DNA of 64,000 nt from positions 1,798,001-1,862,000 of the forward strand of contig NZ_CP040504.1 in assembly GCF_005886145.1 (NCBI RefSeq). Direction: 5' to 3'. This document shows positions 56,559-64,000 of the stretch, piece after piece. How positions within the stretch are numbered: the first letter of the stretch is position 1; every line of letters begins with the position of its first letter. The position numbers and the translations under genes are program-made. The notes beneath the pieces were generated by a model. It searched no databases, was not told where the DNA came from, and saw only the letters and a program-made list of their open reading frames with translations. The DNA comes from Neisseria sp. oral taxon 014 str. F0314 (GTDB lineage: Bacteria > Pseudomonadota > Gammaproteobacteria > Burkholderiales > Neisseriaceae).

Positions 56559-58310
56559 GTTGTAGCTCCCTTTCTCATTTCGCAGTGCTACAATTCTCAC
56601 AGCCTGCGCCTCTACGCCCGCGCCGTTGTAGCTCCCTTTCTCATTTCGCAGTGCTACAATGCCGGTCTGTTTGTATAACGAGTGCTTCATGTTGTAGCTC
56701 CCTTTCTCATTTCGCAGTGCTACAATCCGTCAGCATCAAGTAATTGAAGTATAAAAGTTGTAGCTCCCTTTCTCATTTCGCAGTGCTACAATCAGCCTTG
56801 AGAGCAACTCGCAGGCCTAAGCGTTGTAGCTCCCTTTCTCATTTCGCAGTGCTACAATTTGGGTCGCTTCGTCGGCGTCAAGAACTTGGTTGTAGCTCCC
56901 TTTCTCATTTCGCAGTGCTACAATAACTCTTGACGCAGCCTGCAATACGCGGGAGTTGTAGCTCCCTTTCTCATTTCGCAGTGCTACAATCCTAAAGCCT
57001 TCCCCTCGTCTGTCAACGGAGTTGTAGCTCCTTTTCTCATTTCGCAGTGCTACAATGGCGCGGCGGTAGGCTTTATGAGCGGACTGGTTGTAGCTCCCTT
57101 TCTCATTTCGCAGTGCTACAATATTTTAATCACGACCAACTCCCCCTATCCTGTTGTAGCTCCCTTTCTCATTTCGCAGTGCTACAATTCCATCGGAATA
57201 AAGTCGCGCGCGACTTCAGTTGTAGCTCCCTTTCTCATTTCGCAGTGCTACAATAAAGCGATTTCTATAAGGAAGACAAAATGAGTTGTAGCTCCCTTTC
57301 TCATTTCGCAGTGCTACAATGATTGCTTTAGTCGTAGCACGAAATGCCACGTTGTAGCTCCCTTTCTCATTTCGCAGTGCTACAATGCCTCCTCCTATCT
57401 TAAACGCCACAATCGAGTTGTAGCTCCCTTTCTCATTTCGCAGTGCTACAATGCCTCCTCCTATCTTAAACGCCACAATCGAGTTGTAGCTCCCTTTCTC
57501 ATTTCGCAGTGCTACAATCTATCAATCCGCCGTCGAGCGGCTTGTTCAGTTGTAGCTCCCTTTCTCATTTCGCAGTGCTACAATTTACAGGGATAATTGA
57601 AGAAATCAAAGTTAGTTGTAGCTCCCTTTCTCATTTCGCAGTGCTACAATTCCCTTCGTCTGTCAGCGGAATACCACTGAGTTGTAGCTCCCTTTCTCAT
57701 TTCGCAGTGCTACAATACCGTCTGAATAAAGTTCAGCTCCATTTCAGTTGTAGCTCCCTTTCTCATTTCGCAGTGCTACAATGATTCCGTCGAGCAATTT
57801 GTTCAAACCAACGTTGTAGCTCCCTTTCTCATTTCGCAGTGCTACAATAGAACAACGCGAAACGGCATGGCGAATTCTGTTGTAGCTCCCTTTCTCATTT
57901 CGCAGTGCTACAATTGCATACGTTGTCTTACCTGCCCCTGGCAAGTTGTAGCTCCCTTTCTCATTTCGCAGTGCTACAATTGGATGTGGCTAGCGTAGCC
58001 GAGTATGAGAGTTGTAGCTCCCTTTCTCATTTCGCAGTGCTACAATGACGTAGCAGGCAGTGCCGACGGGTGGCGGGTTGTAGCTCCCTTTCTCATTTCG
58101 CAGTGCTACAATATTCGCGGACGGCTCAGAGATTAGAATTGAGTTGTAGCTCCCTTTCTCATTTCGCAGTGCTACAATGTTGTAAACCTCGCAGTTGTTT
58201 AATAACTCGTTGTAGCTCCCTTTCTCATTTCGCAGTGCTACAATCGGGAATTGCGGTTGATGAAAACTGTACCTGTTGTAGCTCCCTTTCTCATTTCGCA
58301 GTGCTACAAT
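56559..58310 (+). CRISPR. Type II-C CRISPR array, 27 repeats of 36 bp and 26 spacers of 30 bp
   Basis: Repeats begin GTTGTAGCTCCCTTTCTC and end GCAGTGCTACAAT. Every unit is exactly 66 bp, so repeat n starts at 56559 + 66(n-1). One repeat (57021) has a single C-to-T change (GCTCCTTTTCTC). Each repeat end, TGCTACAAT, is an extended -10 box; in meningococcus such repeat-internal promoters drive individual crRNAs, so processing by RNase III may be dispensable here too. Transcription is rightwards, towards the 3' end of cas2. Spacers 13 (57387) and 14 (57453) are identical. The flank after the last repeat has a small AATCCTTA/TAAGGATT hairpin (about 58324-58342). Confidence 0.98.
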
Positions 58311-58373: not shown

Positions 58374-58700
58374 TTAGAACAGCAATAATTGGTCTGAATT
58401 GACCTTTTTTTCTTGGGTTTTGAGTTCGCCTAAAAGCAGTTTCATGGCGGCAAACTGCTTTTCTGTTACTTCCAAACAGCGTATCGAGCCTTCTTGCGGT
58501 AGGTTGGCGCATAGTCTGTTGTGGTGTTTCTGCAACGCATCTCTACCTTTGACAATCCGGCTGTACACGGAAAGTTGCAGCATTTGATAGCCGTCTTTCA
58601 ATAGGAAATGTCGGAATTGGTTGGCGGCTTTGCGTTTGGCGACGGTGGTAACTGGCAGGTCAAAAAAGACGATAATCCGCATAAACTTTGCCTCACTCAT
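58374..58700 (-). CDS. cas2: CRISPR-associated endonuclease Cas2
   Basis: Adaptation protein that bridges two Cas1 dimers in the spacer integrase. It has 108 residues with the ferredoxin-like fold. [11 protein letters not shown] (about 7-17) holds the conserved aspartate after strand 1, and FHF-like [18 protein letters not shown] follows. Its start overlaps the cas1 stop by 8 bases. It is the last gene of the cas operon and converges on the array. Confidence 0.96.
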
Positions 58701-59607
58701 ATTGATATTCTTTCAAAGGCAGGATTTCGGGCAGTTTCAGCAGTTTGGCGTTTTTGGCGGCGAGGCTTGGCTGGAATGAGGCAATCATTTTGTCTATGGC
58801 TGCCAGTGTACTGAAGGTCTGCTGTTCGATGCCGACTTGGGAGTGCAGGATTCTGATCAAGGCTTGTTTGGTTTGCGGCGTCAATTCGCTTTTCAGACGA
58901 CCTTGCTCTTTCAGGTTCAGTATGGTCAGGTCGGCAAGCGGGCGCAATGGTTCGATAAAGTCGTCGGCAAGATTGAAGGGATTGAGTTCGCTTTTATGAA
59001 ACAGCCCCAATGCGGGCAACCAACCATATAAGGCGAGGGAGCGGGCAACGGCGGCCCGAATCACGGCGTAGGCGTAATTCAGACTGGCATTGACGGTATT
59101 GTTGTCGTTGCGGGTAAATTTTTCTCCGAACACGGCTTGAAAATAGAGGGCGGCGGCTTGAGCTTCGCGGTTCCCTGTATCGCCGGAGCGAACTTCGGCA
59201 GCCAATGCGCGTAGCCGTTTAGCAGCAATGTCATTGCCTGTTTCGTCGGCAACAAATGCTTGGTTGAGGATTTTTCGACGGACGATATGTTGCCAAAGTT
59301 GCTTTTTTAAGGGTTCGCTGATATTCAGTTGCTGCTTGAGAGTTTTTAATTGGCGATGGTATTGCGAGTAAGGCAGCCATTGACCACAGGGTAGGAATTG
59401 TTCGTCGCAAGTCAGCAGAGTCGTTCCATATTCTGCCAATGCCGATAAAAGCGGGGCGGTAATCAGTGTTTCCCGATGTTCGACAACAATGACAGCAATG
59501 TCTTCCAAGGGGACGGTATAAGATTCTCCGTTTTGACGAATTAGCATTTGTTTGCGGTGCAACGACAGTTTGCCGCTGTTTTGGATAAGCAGGCTGCGCC
59601 ATGTCAT
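58693..59607 (-). CDS. cas1: CRISPR-associated endonuclease/integrase Cas1
   Basis: Metal-dependent integrase for spacer acquisition, 304 residues from the ATG at 59607 ([16 protein letters not shown]), the usual type II-C length. The upstream open frame is outside the family. The catalytic set appears intact: [14 protein letters not shown] (Glu/Asn region), [20 protein letters not shown] with the conserved His and Asp. A GTCGTCTGAA-type DUS lies inside the gene (about 58901). It is translated just before, and coupled to, cas2. Confidence 0.96.
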
Positions 59608-59678
59608 GTGTTTTCTCCTTTGTGTTTGTGCGACGAAAAATCCCTGCTTCAGGTCGTCTGAAACAGGGATGAGTTTAT

Positions 59679-62600
59679 TTAACGGACAGGCGGACGTTTT
59701 TTCAGACGACATGGTCTGATTTCTTTACCGAGTTCGTCGATTTGGTATTTTTGGAATGAAAGGGCGGTTTTGACACCGATGCCTTCCAGAATTCCGTTTT
59801 TCCCGACTTTATTATCCAGATCGTGGATACGGATATTAATATTACCTGTACCTCGATGACAGCTAGCAAAGTAACCAAATATTCTAGCTTTTTTAGTTAT
59901 TACCTCAACTAAATCATTAGGATGTAATGGGAATTTGAAGTTGAAACTGTCATCAATAAGTTGCCACTCCTCTTCGTCTTTAAAGGCAATTATCGCCTTA
60001 TCCGGCAAAATTCCTTTCGCCACCTGCCAACTGTAAATCGGTACCAAATAATATTTGCCACCTTTCTCAAACACATCTACCCGTACCATAGTCGCATTAT
60101 CGGCGATGCCGTTTTGATTGCGCACCCATACGCCGGTTTTCTGTACTTGCTCAATGCGCACGGCTTTTACCTGTTGGGTACGGTTGCCTGCTTTATCCTG
60201 TTTGTAAAACGGCTCGGCAAAGGCTTTGGCAGGATCGTCTTTATGCGCTTCCAAACGTGCTTTCAGTGCTTCGTATAGCTTAGGTTCGCGCTCCCGATTG
60301 ACCATTTTTTCCAAGTCTTTCAGTTTTAGCTGCGTCAGCGGTACGCGTACTACACTGATGCCTTCGTCCAACCGTTTGGGGGATTTGATGGTCTCCATAT
60401 GGCCTTGCCCGCTCATCTTCCGATTGGGCGCACGCGAAACAAACAGCGGGGCGACGTATTCGTGTACGGCTTCGGGGCGAGATGATAATTTTTCGGCAAG
60501 CAGCGCGCGCAGTTTTTCTGGGGTATCGGCTTCTTCAAGTTCGGGTTTGCCGTCTGGTTTGCCAAAGACACGTATCATGACTTCTTGTGCGAAAAATTCC
60601 CAAGGTTGCGGGAAGTGTGTTTTTTGATGTAGCACTTCGCCCGTCTCTTTATCCACAGTTTTACCGTCAAACGCGTTCATTTCTTTGTAACGTACAAAAC
60701 GGGTAATTCTCTGCTGCATGGCAACGGTCGAACAGGCAACGACGACTGCGTCCAAAGCATGATGGCGGTCGTTTTCCGCACGCACTTTGCGTAGTCCCCA
60801 AAAGCCGCGCAATAAATTGGTAATTTGTCCGTTGGAGGCAAATACGCGTCTTTTTCCTTTTCCGGTCAGTTGCATATGGTCGGCAACAAATTTGCACAGA
60901 AAACGGTTGACGTAGCGCGTATCGTTCAAGTTGCGTTCTTTAAATCCTTCTTCATCGAATTTCTGCAGTAGAATCCGTTGCTTTTTACTGTGAGGAAAAC
61001 GGCTGGTTTCTACGCGCGCTTTAAATTCCTGCCATTCGCGGCTGTTGTCTTTGCCGTTTAAATATTCATAAGGTGTTCGGTTGCCTTTGTTTTGGTTTTC
61101 GCTGCCCAATACCAGCACTTTATTGTTGAAACTGTCGTCCCATGTGCGCGAAAACGGCAAGGCATGGTCAATTTCAACATAGCCTTTTTCGTTCAAACGG
61201 CCTAAATTAATTTCTTTGCCTGAATACAGACATTTACAGTTTTGTTGTCGGTATAGACGTAGTTTCAAAATATCTTTGGATTTGGGTTCGCCGACAAAAT
61301 TGGGGAAATATTCTTGAAATTCAGCAGCAGCTTTTTCCCTGTCTTTGCGGTTTTCTTCCTGACGTTTCTCAATTTCTTTGCGGTCTTTAAATGATTTACC
61401 CACTTCACGCGCTGTTTCGATATGAATGCGCGCAGGAGAGCCGTAACGCCGCCCCACGCCGTTAATGACTTTCCTTGCTTGCGATAAGGCGCGCAAGACG
61501 ACGGGATTGCGGATTTCGTCGGCGGGAATCGGCGGCAGATAAAGCGTTTCCTCCGAATTTCTCCTTCCGTGATGATCGCCGTAGATTTCGGCGCAGGCTT
61601 CATCGTAACGTTTGCCTTGTTCCATCAATGGCACAATTCGGCGCAACGCTTTCAAAGAAATCTGGACGAACTTGTCAAAGCTGATGTGTTTCAACAGCGC
61701 ATCCAAGATTTCAGGTTGCAAGCAGCCTTTCAGACGACCTGTAATCTCTTCATCGGTCTTAAACAGGGAAAATGCTGTGCCGATTTCATCCTGCAATTCG
61801 GGAGAAAGGCTCAACGGAGATTTCTTGTCTTTCAAACCCTCTTTTTCTAGCGCGCGGCTGATGGCGTGGTAAGCCTTCATTTCCATCAGTGTTGCGGATT
61901 CGGCATTGTCTTTGCCGTAACGCAAGCCTTTGAAGAATGCCGTATCGTCCAAGTCCAGCAGTTTGCGGGCTTGGGCATAGGTCAGCTTGGACTTTTTGTA
62001 TGGTTCGTCCATAAGCGTGGTACGTTCGGCATCAGTCAGCGGACGTTCGTTTCCTTGATTTAAAATACGCAGATTGTTCAGTTTGGTCAGCCAGATAAAA
62101 CGTTCGGCGGTGTAGGTGTTTTTGGCTGCTTTCGGTTCTGCCGGCTCGAAGGTGCAATGTCCTAACATTTTTTGAATGGCATCGCCGGATAGGGCAGGAC
62201 GTTGCGTCATCAGCAGGTTTTCAATACCGTTTTTGAGGTCGTCTGAAACATACGGATTGCCGAATTCTTTTTGTTTTTCAAACAGCAAAACGAGTTCCGC
62301 CTGTAAATCTTTGCGGCTGAATGTATGCGAATAATCGCCGCGCTGGTTACGGATATGACCGCTTTCTTTTTCAAATTTATTCAAAGCCAATTCGGCCGGA
62401 GTGCGAAAATTGCCTGCTTGTAAAGCGTGGGTATTATCAGCCACACCTTTGAGCAAAGCGCCCAGTTCCTTATCATCAGTTTCCCCCTCGTTTTTCCGTT
62501 GCGACAGATAGCCGCGATGTTTGACCAAATGCAGCAAAACTGCTGCCCATTCTAAAGGTGTCAATTTGCGGTCCAATGCGGCCGCACGAAGTTGCCACGG

Positions 62601-62948
62601 CGTATTACGAGGTTGTTTTGGTATATAGGGTAAAGGTTTAACCAAACCGTTTTCATCAAAATCTTCGGGTTTTAAAACGCCTTCGTGCTTCAACAGACGA
62701 CGCGCCCGAAGCAGGCGATGGGCGCGACGGCGGGTCAGACGGCGGACGCTGCGCGCCAAACGCCTTGCCGCGGCCAGCGAATCTCCCGTTTTCGGCATTT
62801 CCGCACGCTCAAAAACACGCACTCCCAAATCAATCAGGCGAACCGGATTTTCTTTATCATCAATTTCCACCATCGCCCAACCGACGGATGCAATACCGAT
62901 GTCGAGACCGAGGATGTAATTCAGTGGATTGGGTTTAAAAGCAGTCAT
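59679..62948 (-). CDS. cas9: Cas9, type II-C, NmeCas9-like
   Basis: RNA-guided nuclease of 1089 residues from the ATG at 62948 ([18 protein letters not shown]); the longer open frame upstream runs through the tracrRNA region and is not coding. RuvC-I D16, the arginine-rich bridge helix (about 61-86), HNH with EIDHALPF (His about 595) and Ruv[14 protein letters not shown] (Asp about 784) are all intact. Compared with NmeCas9 as I remember it (1082 residues), it has a 7-residue insertion, YIPKQPR, at about 108-114. The PAM-interacting [11 protein letters not shown] segment is conserved. Three internal DUS copies plus one at the 3' end are of the GTCGTCTGAA dialect. Confidence 0.98.
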
Positions 62949-63020
62949 TTGTTTCTCCGCAATTTCATAAACAACAACAGCAATATATCTGAAAAAAGCA
63001 TTAACATGCAAATGAAATAG

Positions 63021-63049
63021 TTGACTTCCGTTACTGCAATCGCTAGAAT
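63021..63049 (+). promoter_or_regulatory. Sigma-70-type promoter of the tracrRNA gene
   Basis: TTGACT at 63021-63026 and TAGAAT at 63044-63049 with a 17-bp spacer give a near-consensus promoter. Transcription would start near 63056, just ahead of the anti-repeat. Confidence 0.85.
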
Positions 63050-63055
63050 CTCCAA

Positions 63056-63210
63056 TATATTGTTGCACTGCGAAATGAGAAACGTTGCTACAATAAGACC
63101 TCGAAGGATGTATGAAAATACATCGTGTCGCAATGCTCTGTCCTTTAGAACCACTGTTCTGGAGAACATCATTAGCCCCTTGAAATTCTTCGGTTTCAAG
63201 GGGCATTTCC
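63056..63210 (+). ncRNA. tracrRNA of the type II-C system
   Basis: The anti-repeat (about 63059-63093, containing CACTGCGAAATGAGAAA) is complementary to the CRISPR repeat, with a bulge at AACGTTG. It is followed by a hairpin GATGTAT-GAAA-ATACATC (63107-63124), an extra hairpin (arms 63143-63151 and 63156-63164) and the terminal stem CCCCTTGAAA/TTTCAAGGGG (63176-63203) with a weak T tract. It is divergent from cas9. The extra middle hairpin and the GAAA upper stem differ from the meningococcal tracrRNA as I recall it. RNA ends are inferred. Confidence 0.9.
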
Positions 63211-63233
63211 TTTGGTATCAAACATAAAAAACG

Positions 63234-63277
63234 AAAGGCCGTCTGAAATTTCAACATGCGGGTTTTCAGACGGCCTC
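63234..63277. terminator. DUS inverted pair between tracrRNA and avtA
   Basis: AGGCCGTCTGAAAT and TTTTCAGACGGCCT face each other. They carry the house GCCGTCTGAA dialect, unlike the DUS copies inside the cas genes. The pair marks the right edge of the CRISPR locus. Confidence 0.75.
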
Positions 63278-63331
63278 TGCTTATGTTCAAGCTGTTATAA
63301 TCACCTTCAAAGATACAGATATGGAGGTTTC

Positions 63332-64000
63332 ATGCAGTTCTCGGCATTCGGCGAAAAATTCACGCAACTCAGCGGCATCCTGCAACTTATGGACGACCTC
63401 GGCGACGCGCTCAAAAGCGACAAGCCCGTCAACATGCTCGGCGGCGGCAATCCGGCGCGAATCGCCGAAGTCAACGCCGTGTTCGCCGATGTATTTTCCA
63501 AACTGGCGGCAGAACACGCTGTTGAGAACATCGGCAACTACTCCAATCCCCAAGGCGATGCCGCGCTGATTGACGCGTTGACCGCCTTCCTCAACCGCGA
63601 ATACGGCTGGCATCTGACCGCCGACAATATCGCGCTGACCAACGGTTCGCAGAACGCGTTTTTCTATCTTTTCAACCTTTTCGGCGGCAAATTCAACGTT
63701 TCAGACGGCCTTTCCGTAGAGAAAGCCATCCTGCTGCCGCTCGCGCCCGAATATATCGGCTATGCCGACGTACACGTCGAAGGGCAGCACTTCGTTTCCG
63801 TCAAACCGAAAATCGAAGCTGTCGCACACGAAGGCGAAGCAGGTTTCTTCAAATACCGTGTGGACTTTGACGCGCTGGAAAGCCTGCCAGAGCTGAAAGA
63901 AGGCAAAATCGGCGCGATTTGCTGTTCGCGCCCGACCAACCCGACCGGCAACGTGCTGACCGACGGCGAAATGGCGCAGCTGGACGCTTTGGCGCAAGAA
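63332..64000 (+). CDS. avtA: Valine-pyruvate aminotransferase, cut by the window end
   Basis: Class I PLP-dependent transaminase; the first 223 codons are present and the frame is open to the last base. It starts MQFSAFGEKFTQLSGILQLM with GGAGG 5 bases upstream of the ATG. MLGGGNPARI (about 35-44), NGSQNAFFYLFN (about 104-115) and CSRPTNPTGNVL (about 199-210) are typical of AvtA, which makes valine or alanine by transamination. A DUS inside encodes NVSDGLS. The PLP lysine lies beyond the window. Confidence 0.92.
   Translation, partial: MQFSAFGEKFTQLSGILQLMDDLGDALKSDKPVNMLGGGNPARIAEVNAVFADVFSKLAAEHAVENIGNYSNPQGDAALIDALTAFLNREYGWHLTADNIALTNGSQNAFFYLFNLFGGKFNVSDGLSVEKAILLPLAPEYIGYADVHVEGQHFVSVKPKIEAVAHEGEAGFFKYRVDFDALESLPELKEGKIGAICCSRPTNPTGNVLTDGEMAQLDALAQE

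What the first reader, a model, noticed from the sequence alone, without database searches (positions are those of the whole stretch)
63056..63210. tracrRNA with an extra hairpin and an altered upper stem
Between the conserved GCAATGCTCTG segment and the terminal hairpin there are about 35 additional bases that can fold into a 9-bp hairpin (63143-63164, two G-U pairs). The upper stem is a perfect GATGTAT/ATACATC with a GAAA loop. In the meningococcal tracrRNA that I remember, the terminal hairpin follows directly and the upper stem contains a DUS-like sequence; here the DUS is gone. This may be a variant scaffold for an otherwise NmeCas9-like enzyme.
Basis: partly seen in the sequence, partly recalled or inferred. 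Interest (0 to 1): 0.72.

Follow-up and report, generated by a model that had tools for sequence, protein, structure and literature searches.

The report
Guide-RNA scaffold with duplicated end hairpin
In this Neisseria the helper RNA of a Cas9 defence system carries two end hairpins where the meningococcal type carries one, apparently splitting the jobs of holding Cas9 and of stopping transcription between two copies; it is an unusual variant of a well-known RNA, not a new kind of system.

Summary
In detail: a type II-C tracrRNA lies at 63056-63210 with hairpin A (63143-63164), terminator hairpin B (63175-63204) and a GATGTAT/ATACATC upper stem. But comparison turns round which hairpin is extra. 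A sits where meningococcal-type stem loop 2 (SL2) sits: lower stem AAUG/CAUU, CUCU/AU internal loop, 26-nt hairpin. That lower stem is fully paired in 39 of 40 parsed tracrRNAs and covaries; a covariance model built without the window puts SL2 on A. The addition is B, which in sequence is nearer to canonical SL2 than any non-tracr hairpin in a background of 253. Best reading: SL2 was duplicated; A kept the Cas9-facing lower stem, B the terminator. Neisseria weixii has the same layout, Stenoxybacter a similar one with an unrelated terminator; neither Cas9 is sister to the window's. The missing DUS and long upper stem recur elsewhere. Extra middle stem loops in Nme1Cas9-ortholog guides are in print (PMC9433092: 6 of 26), where 25 of 29 orthologs worked with the meningococcal scaffold. 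A new variant of a known kind; moderate interest.

The parts
63021..63049 (+). sigma-70-like promoter TTGACT-17-TAGAAT of the tracrRNA
   Evidence: 10 of 12 consensus letters; 2 sites found in the region, shuffles mean 1.1; TTGAC and TAGAAT-like boxes at the same place in relatives
63059..63094 (+). anti-repeat, pairs with the array repeat GTTGTAGCTCCCTTTCTCATTTCGCAGTGCTACAAT
   Evidence: Rfam CRISPR-DR34 on the - strand; 28 matches of the query in the genome, 27 of them within the array; guide fold
63097..63129 (+). stem loop 1: outer GAC/GTC (63097-63099 with 63127-63129) and expanded upper stem GATGTAT-GAAA-ATACATC (63107-63124)
   Evidence: upper stem pairs at probability 0.97-1.0; the outer stem only 0.14 in isolation, where another register (63102-63105) is preferred at 0.71-0.79; the homologous outer helix covaries GC to AU and the model aligns GAC/GTC there
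63132..63173 (+). hairpin A = stem loop 2: lower stem AATG/CATT, internal loop CTCT/AT, closing G63140-C63167, 26-nt hairpin 63141-63166
63175..63204 (+). hairpin B: added terminator-like hairpin, 13 bp, then ATTTCCTTT; SL2-like in sequence
59679..62948 (-). cas9, 1089 aa, Nme1Cas9 ortholog
58693..59712 (-). cas1 (type II, TIGR03639); start codon not settled
58374..58700 (-). cas2 (TIGR01573)
56559..58310 (+). CRISPR array, 27 repeats (26 perfect, one with one mismatch), 26 spacers; crRNA sense is the + strand, as the tracrRNA carries the reverse complement of the repeat

Best explanation
This is the tracrRNA of a Neisseria type II-C CRISPR-Cas9 locus in which SL2, which in its relatives both docks on Cas9 and ends transcription, is present as two tandem hairpins. 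Proximal hairpin A keeps the geometry that Cas9 reads (lower stem AAUG/CAUU, CUCU/AU internal loop, 26-nt hairpin), but its upper stem is poorer in G+C and no U tract follows. Distal hairpin B keeps the SL2-like G+C-rich sequence and the terminator role, but has no lower-stem arm. Most likely Cas9 binds anti-repeat duplex, SL1 and A as in Nme1Cas9, and B ends the transcript and caps its 3' end. Shown by sequence comparison: homologous position of A, covariation of the lower stem, SL2-like sequence of B, absence of a U tract after A. Inferred: tandem duplication as the route, Cas9 contact to A, termination at B.
For: Lower stem fully paired in 39 of 40 parsed tracrRNAs (5 of 45 not parsed), in six paired arm combinations, with AT in the internal loop in 40 of 40; 0 of 20000 shuffles of the 3' arms reach this. 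On 22 tracrRNAs, without the three split ones, the structure has covariation 0.359 against 0.131 in shuffles; the model from them aligns the window end to end with SL2 on A, 57.0 bits, no gap in SL2. The part of the Nme1 guide RNA displaced by AcrIIC2, '125-131:98-90' (PMC6594998, section 9 read), has strands of 9 and 7 nt with 26 nt between, the lengths of AATGCTCTG-26-CATCATT. The full geometry appears in 6 of 200000 dinucleotide shuffles. Lower-stem pair probabilities 0.57-0.71, no rival partner above 0.03. B scores 25.5 against SL2s; the best non-tracr hairpin among 253 scores 10.0. The six nearest relatives by Cas9 have a single SL2.
Against: A itself is not SL2-like in sequence (59 of 253 background hairpins score as high), so its descent from SL2 rests on position and geometry. 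B followed by ATTTCCTTT is only a moderate terminator. G+C-rich terminators with UUCG-like loops can converge on similar sequences; Stenoxybacter shows a split layout with a terminator that is not SL2-like. The SL1 outer stem is not the preferred register in isolation. In the parse the hairpin of the ordinary tracrRNAs was required to start at the G of CTCTG. There are no RNA data.
Confidence: 0.7

Rival explanations
1. A is a true insertion between the conserved GCTCTG segment and the unchanged terminal hairpin B, which remains SL2.
For: B is the hairpin that resembles canonical SL2 in sequence. In another Cas9 clade (11 of 40 parsed tracrRNAs) a small hairpin does sit between the 5' arm and the G+C-rich hairpin, so insertions there are tolerated.
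Against: In that clade the arms GACG/CGTC still flank the G+C-rich hairpin; in the window the pairing arms AATG/CATT flank A, and the letters at the matching place after B (TTCC) cannot pair with AATG. The model places SL2 on A.
Confidence: 0.08
2. The layout came in by recombination from another lineage, or B is an independently acquired terminator, rather than by tandem duplication within this tracrRNA.
For: N. weixii shares both novelties (extra hairpin in SL1; A plus B with AACATCAT shortly before GCCCC). Within the RNA the window is slightly nearer to N. weixii than to the other 11 rows compared: SL1 59% against 40-56%, SL2 67% against 46-66%, next 40 nt 63% against 22-47%. Stenoxybacter has a split layout with a terminator that is not SL2-like (score -2.5). 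Neisseria take up DNA (recalled).
Against: Outside the RNA the window is nearer to the six meningococcal-clade rows than to N. weixii: upstream 110 nt 60-65% against 51%, cas9 start 74-76% against 59%. No second good match to B in 46 genus genomes.
Confidence: 0.25
3. The tracrRNA is decaying and the two-hairpin end is drift in a dead system.
For: Degraded loci exist in the genus: G024 lost the anti-repeat, cas9 of N. iguanae and N. weixii is interrupted. No spacer gave a convincing phage match.
Against: Here cas9, cas1 and cas2 are open and above their NCBIfam cut-offs, 26 of 27 repeats are perfect, promoter boxes and anti-repeat are intact, and the lower stem keeps its pairing through a change on both sides relative to AACG/CGTT.
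Confidence: 0.05
4. The transcript reaches B but B is trimmed off, so the working RNA has one SL2 as in meningococci.
For: Only 1 nt separates the SL2 lower stem and B; canonical tracrRNAs have their T-rich tail just after that stem.
Against: No data here; B is a 13-bp hairpin that would be expected to protect a 3' end.
Confidence: 0.15

Closest known systems
Neisseria meningitidis-type (Nme1Cas9) tracrRNA, single SL2
   Same: Anti-repeat, SL1 position, SL2 lower stem with CUCU/AU internal loop and 26-nt hairpin, promoter position, divergent cas9 (compared with the six meningococcal-clade loci)
   Different: Here SL2 has no U tract and fewer G+C at its base; a separate terminator hairpin follows after 1 nt; SL1 has a longer upper stem and no DUS
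Nme1Cas9-ortholog guide RNAs with two middle stem loops (6 of 26, Wei et al. 2022, PMC9433092; passages and section 5 read, figures and supplements not seen)
   Same: One more stem loop than the meningococcal guide RNA; the fold of the window's guide would fall in that class
   Different: In the 11 tracrRNAs with an extra loop that I parsed (Bergeriella and Neisseria), the small hairpin lies inside the 5' side of the SL2 internal loop and SL2 still has the T-rich tail; that these correspond to the paper's six is my guess
Neisseria weixii tracrRNA (L022, G042)
   Same: SL2 of the same geometry with an A+U-rich stem, then an SL2-like GCCCC hairpin; extra hairpin in SL1
   Different: Cas9 of another clade; its cas9 appears as two overlapping pieces in this assembly; lower stem 3 of 4 pairs
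Stenoxybacter acetivorans tracrRNA (L023, G081)
   Same: SL2 lower stem AACA/UGUU without U tract, separate hairpin right after it
   Different: Short 15-nt SL2 hairpin; its terminator is not SL2-like; Cas9 about 55-60% identical in the three parts compared

Membership tests
type II-C CRISPR-Cas9 locus | cas9, cas1, cas2 and a repeat array together | tested here: met
   NCBIfam TIGR01865, TIGR03639, TIGR01573; array
type II-C CRISPR-Cas9 locus | no fourth adaptation gene (csn2 or cas4) | tested here: inconclusive
   no fourth cas gene between the transaminase gene (63332) and the array; three ORFs beyond the array match no NCBIfam family; the rest of the genome was not scanned for csn2 or cas4
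tracrRNA | anti-repeat complementary to the array repeat, near cas9 | tested here: met
tracrRNA | transcribed and bound by Cas9 | not testable with these tools
   promoter and terminator are sequence matches only
Nme/Pasteurellaceae-type tracrRNA (model R1) | SL2 lower stem with covarying arms and AT internal loop | tested here: met
   AATG/CATT, AT; 57.0 bits
Nme/Pasteurellaceae-type tracrRNA (model R1) | SL2 doubles as terminator (T-rich tail after the lower stem) | tested here: not met
   tail AGCCCCTT; 36 of 40 have at least 3 T in 8 nt, the four others are window, N. weixii, Stenoxybacter and P. bettyae
Nme1Cas9 orthologs | full-length relation to Nme1Cas9, catalytic sites present | tested here: met
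   PDB chains incl. 6jdv (called Nme1Cas9 in PMC9433092) over residues 1-1089; D16 and the EIDHALPFS stretch in the translation, their catalytic role recalled
Nme1Cas9 orthologs | works with the meningococcal scaffold | not testable with these tools
   PMC9433092 reports 25 of 29 other orthologs active with it
guide RNAs with two middle stem loops (Wei et al. 2022) | one more predicted middle stem loop than Nme1 | tested here: met
   guide fold with separate SL1, A and B hairpins

The most novel reading that the evidence does not exclude
A natural division of labour inside one non-coding RNA: a tracrRNA domain that had two jobs, Cas9 docking and transcription stop, was duplicated and each copy kept one job; this happened more than once among Neisseriaceae, so the two jobs of SL2 are separable, and the freed docking copy may tune Cas9 assembly or its sensitivity to anti-CRISPRs that compete with SL2, such as AcrIIC2.
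Probability: 0.3. Interest if true: 0.6.

Novelty: new variant of a known kind. Interest (0 to 1): 0.4.

Why it matters
It offers a natural experiment on what Cas9 needs from SL2: the lower stem and hairpin length are kept while the hairpin sequence is not. That bears on guide design for Nme-type Cas9s and on tracrRNA annotation, since here the hairpin that looks conserved by sequence is not the one in the conserved place; a reading that stops at the first hairpin, or calls the middle one an insertion, would mislabel the RNA.

Tried and rejected
Rfam has no match to the body of this RNA in 62900-63400; only the anti-repeat matched (CRISPR-DR34), and a SAM-III match on the other strand is far below its cut-off (16.8 against 45 bits). 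B is not a visible dispersed element: besides itself, the best match to 63165-63235 in 46 genus genomes has E 0.009 and covers 18 nt outside B (the match list was cut). A plasmid search gave only a 41-nt match over the anti-repeat in three Pasteurella records. The array gave two phage hits at E 7, not usable, so there is no protospacer test of the PAM. An IMG/VR scan for a 27-nt anti-repeat pattern found nothing. A class-wide scan with the model gave 1 of 369 genomes, the window's own (strict filters). The link of the long SL1 stem with the split end was considered and dropped, since G003 has the long stem with a single SL2. The 7-aa insertion of the window's Cas9 could not be tied to the RNA change.

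Papers. Read: section 5 and passages of PMC9433092; section 9 and passages of PMC6594998. Passages only: PMC9701194, PMC6282386, PMC7606464, PMC8560862, PMC13431127, PMC12080349. Sun et al. 2019, the Nme1Cas9 structure paper, is not held. Searches behind the statement on what is in print: (open-licence PMC papers only). In the titles, abstract starts and passages seen I found no description of SL2 and terminator on separate hairpins in a Neisseria tracrRNA; the figures and supplements of PMC9433092, where one could be, were not seen. That the meningococcal tracrRNA lacks the second hairpin is recalled for N. meningitidis itself and shown here on meningococcal-clade loci, of which only N. bergeri is named.

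Weak points of counts. One search was a first parse with a faulty pattern (13 of 45 parsed) and was replaced (40 of 45). The five unparsed are distant (Enterobacteriaceae MAG, Azoarcus MAG, Andreprevotia, Patescibacteria MAG, Methylophilaceae MAG). Before that count seven loci without the anti-repeat motif were left out (L036, L057, L091-L095), and G024 and G077, found later, are not in it. Four genomes with a Cas9 match (G058, G061, G063, G064) have no model match. The 40 include near-identical rows of related genomes, so the shuffle count is not a probability. In one search the first list of SL1 outer pairs was set one base off and is void; the per-base list in that call is the one used.

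Full report
What is there. The window's right end holds a Neisseria type II-C locus: cas9 (62948-59679, - strand, 1089 aa), cas1, cas2 and an array of 27 repeats with 26 spacers. The tracrRNA is read divergently from cas9 at 63056-63210, behind TTGACT-17-TAGAAT; the next gene on that side matches valine-pyruvate transaminase models, below their cut-offs because the window ends inside it. Cas9 matches solved Cas9 chains, among them 6jdv (called Nme1Cas9 in PMC9433092), over its whole length. The six nearest genomes in the family scan are 89-92% identical.

Which hairpin is the extra one. I collected tracrRNAs next to related cas9 genes from named contigs and from the family's genomes. After the anti-repeat and SL1 they show four letters, CTCTG or the like, a hairpin, C, AT, and four letters that pair with the first four. 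I parsed 40 of 45 by anchors that do not use this outer pairing (in the ordinary ones the hairpin had to start at the G of CTCTG). The four arm pairs are complete in 39 of 40 (N. weixii has 3 of 4), the AT is present in 40 of 40, and the arms come as AACG/CGTT (17), GACG/CGTC (11), AATG/CATT (5), AAAG/CTTT (4) and one each of AACA/TGTT, GAAG/CTTC and AATG/CATG. On the alignment of 22 tracrRNAs the structure has 96.7% paired cells and a covariation score of 0.359, against 0.131 shuffled and at most 0.106 when slid. The window obeys this with AATG (63132-63135) and CATT (63170-63173) and exactly 26 nt between G63140 and C63167, the length found in 27 of 40. The model from those 22, which exclude the window, N. 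weixii and Stenoxybacter, aligns the window from 63084 to 63173 with SL2 on hairpin A (57.0 bits; N. weixii 58.4; Stenoxybacter 40.7). Such geometry arises in 6 of 200000 shuffles of the downstream 70 nt.

The paper on AcrIIC2 (PMC6594998, section 9 read) names the duplex 125-131:98-90 of the Nme1 guide RNA as the part of SL2 that AcrIIC2 displaces. Strands of 9 and 7 nt with 26 nt between fit AACGCUCUG and CAUCGUU, so the covarying lower stem is most likely the Cas9-facing part. That assignment of numbers to letters is my inference.

What B is. After the lower stem most tracrRNAs go straight into a T-rich tail (at least 3 T in 8 nt in 36 of 40). The exceptions are the window, N. weixii, Stenoxybacter and P. 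bettyae. In the first three another hairpin follows within one nt. P. bettyae keeps a G+C-rich SL2 and has a separate hairpin 6 nt on, so it is a partial case. I compared B with the canonical SL2s against 253 distinct terminator-like hairpins of the window and 24 Neisseriaceae loci, both strands, the SL2s themselves included. Window B scores 25.5 and N. weixii B 21.0. Every hairpin above 10.0 is an SL2, a B, or the reverse strand of one. Stenoxybacter's terminator scores -2.5. Hairpin A scores 3.5, which is ordinary. So in the window and in N. weixii one hairpin has SL2's place and the other has SL2's sequence. Tandem duplication with division of labour explains this most simply; recombination or separate acquisition remains a rival.

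How often. In the family scan 27 of 83 genomes have a model match (strict filters): 11 with a single SL2, 11 with a small hairpin inside the SL2 loop, 3 split (G000, G042, G081), one remnant (G024) and one distant RNA (G077) without recognisable SL2. In Cas9 trees of 39 rows from two parts of the protein the window sits in the meningococcal clade of 7 rows (100/100 and 100/99), N. weixii with N. iguanae and G043 (100/100 and 100/99), and Stenoxybacter on a long branch of its own. The 11 with the small hairpin form one clade (100/100 and 100/99). The nearest relatives of the window (6) and of N. weixii (2) have a single SL2. The split layout is thus in three non-sister Cas9 lineages, by separate events or by exchange of the short RNA. 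Flanking identities show no exchange between the window and N. weixii, but within the RNA the window is slightly nearer to N. weixii than to other rows, so a short exchange is not excluded.

SL1 and the DUS. AGGCCGTCTGAA has 76 copies in the 64 kb window, and the same 12-mer is in SL1 of the six meningococcal-clade tracrRNAs. Its absence here is shared with G003, G043, N. iguanae, N. weixii, G082 and Stenoxybacter. SL1's upper part varies in length across the alignment, so I read the change as tolerated variation.

Known work. Wei et al. 2022 (PMC9433092, section 5 read) predicted guide RNAs for 26 orthologs, 20 with one and 6 with two middle stem loops, and found 25 of 29 orthologs active with the Nme1 scaffold. 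An added stem loop is therefore neither new nor, by that result, likely to make this Cas9 need its own scaffold. What I did not find described is the split of SL2 and terminator, within the limits of the searches named under Tried and rejected.

Verdict. Ordinary in kind, uncommon in form: an Nme-type tracrRNA with SL2 in place and an added, SL2-like terminator. Interest 0.4.

Noticed in passing
L113 (genome G024), around locus position 1500; relatives L068 and L070: A degraded type II-C locus: by comparison with relatives about 840 nt covering the cas9 start, promoter and anti-repeat are missing, and the junction lies in a 14-nt direct repeat AAGGCCGTCTGAAA (holding the AG-DUS) found both inside cas9 and inside tracrRNA SL1 of L068 and L070. 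DUS copies may act as deletion end points.
   Followed up: partly
window 62607-62627, - strand (Cas9 residues 108-114): Seven-residue insertion YIPKQPR after the bridge helix; absent from 12 of 13 other Neisseriaceae rows shown, the 13th (Stenoxybacter) having a different, longer insertion.
   Followed up: no
window 56559-58310: 26 spacers, one present twice side by side, one repeat with a single mismatch; no convincing phage match.
   Followed up: partly
window 59682-60158, - strand (Cas9 residues 931-1089): PI domain is 95% identical to that of G036 and keeps SCHRGTGN, with the H, T and N named for Nme1Cas9 PAM reading in PMC9433092, while G009, G035 and N. bergeri are only 74-76% identical there on a similar body; suggests an N4GATT-like PAM.
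   Followed up: partly
L017, L020, L021, L048, L050, L052, L054, L055, L056, L058, L081: One Cas9 clade of Neisseria and Bergeriella has a small hairpin inside the 5' side of the SL2 internal loop, with arms GACG/CGTC in all 11 parsed.
   Followed up: partly
L022 (N. weixii, G042), L025 (N. iguanae, G016): cas9 is interrupted in both assemblies: two overlapping pieces in N. weixii, two pieces and a TAG in N. iguanae.
   Followed up: no
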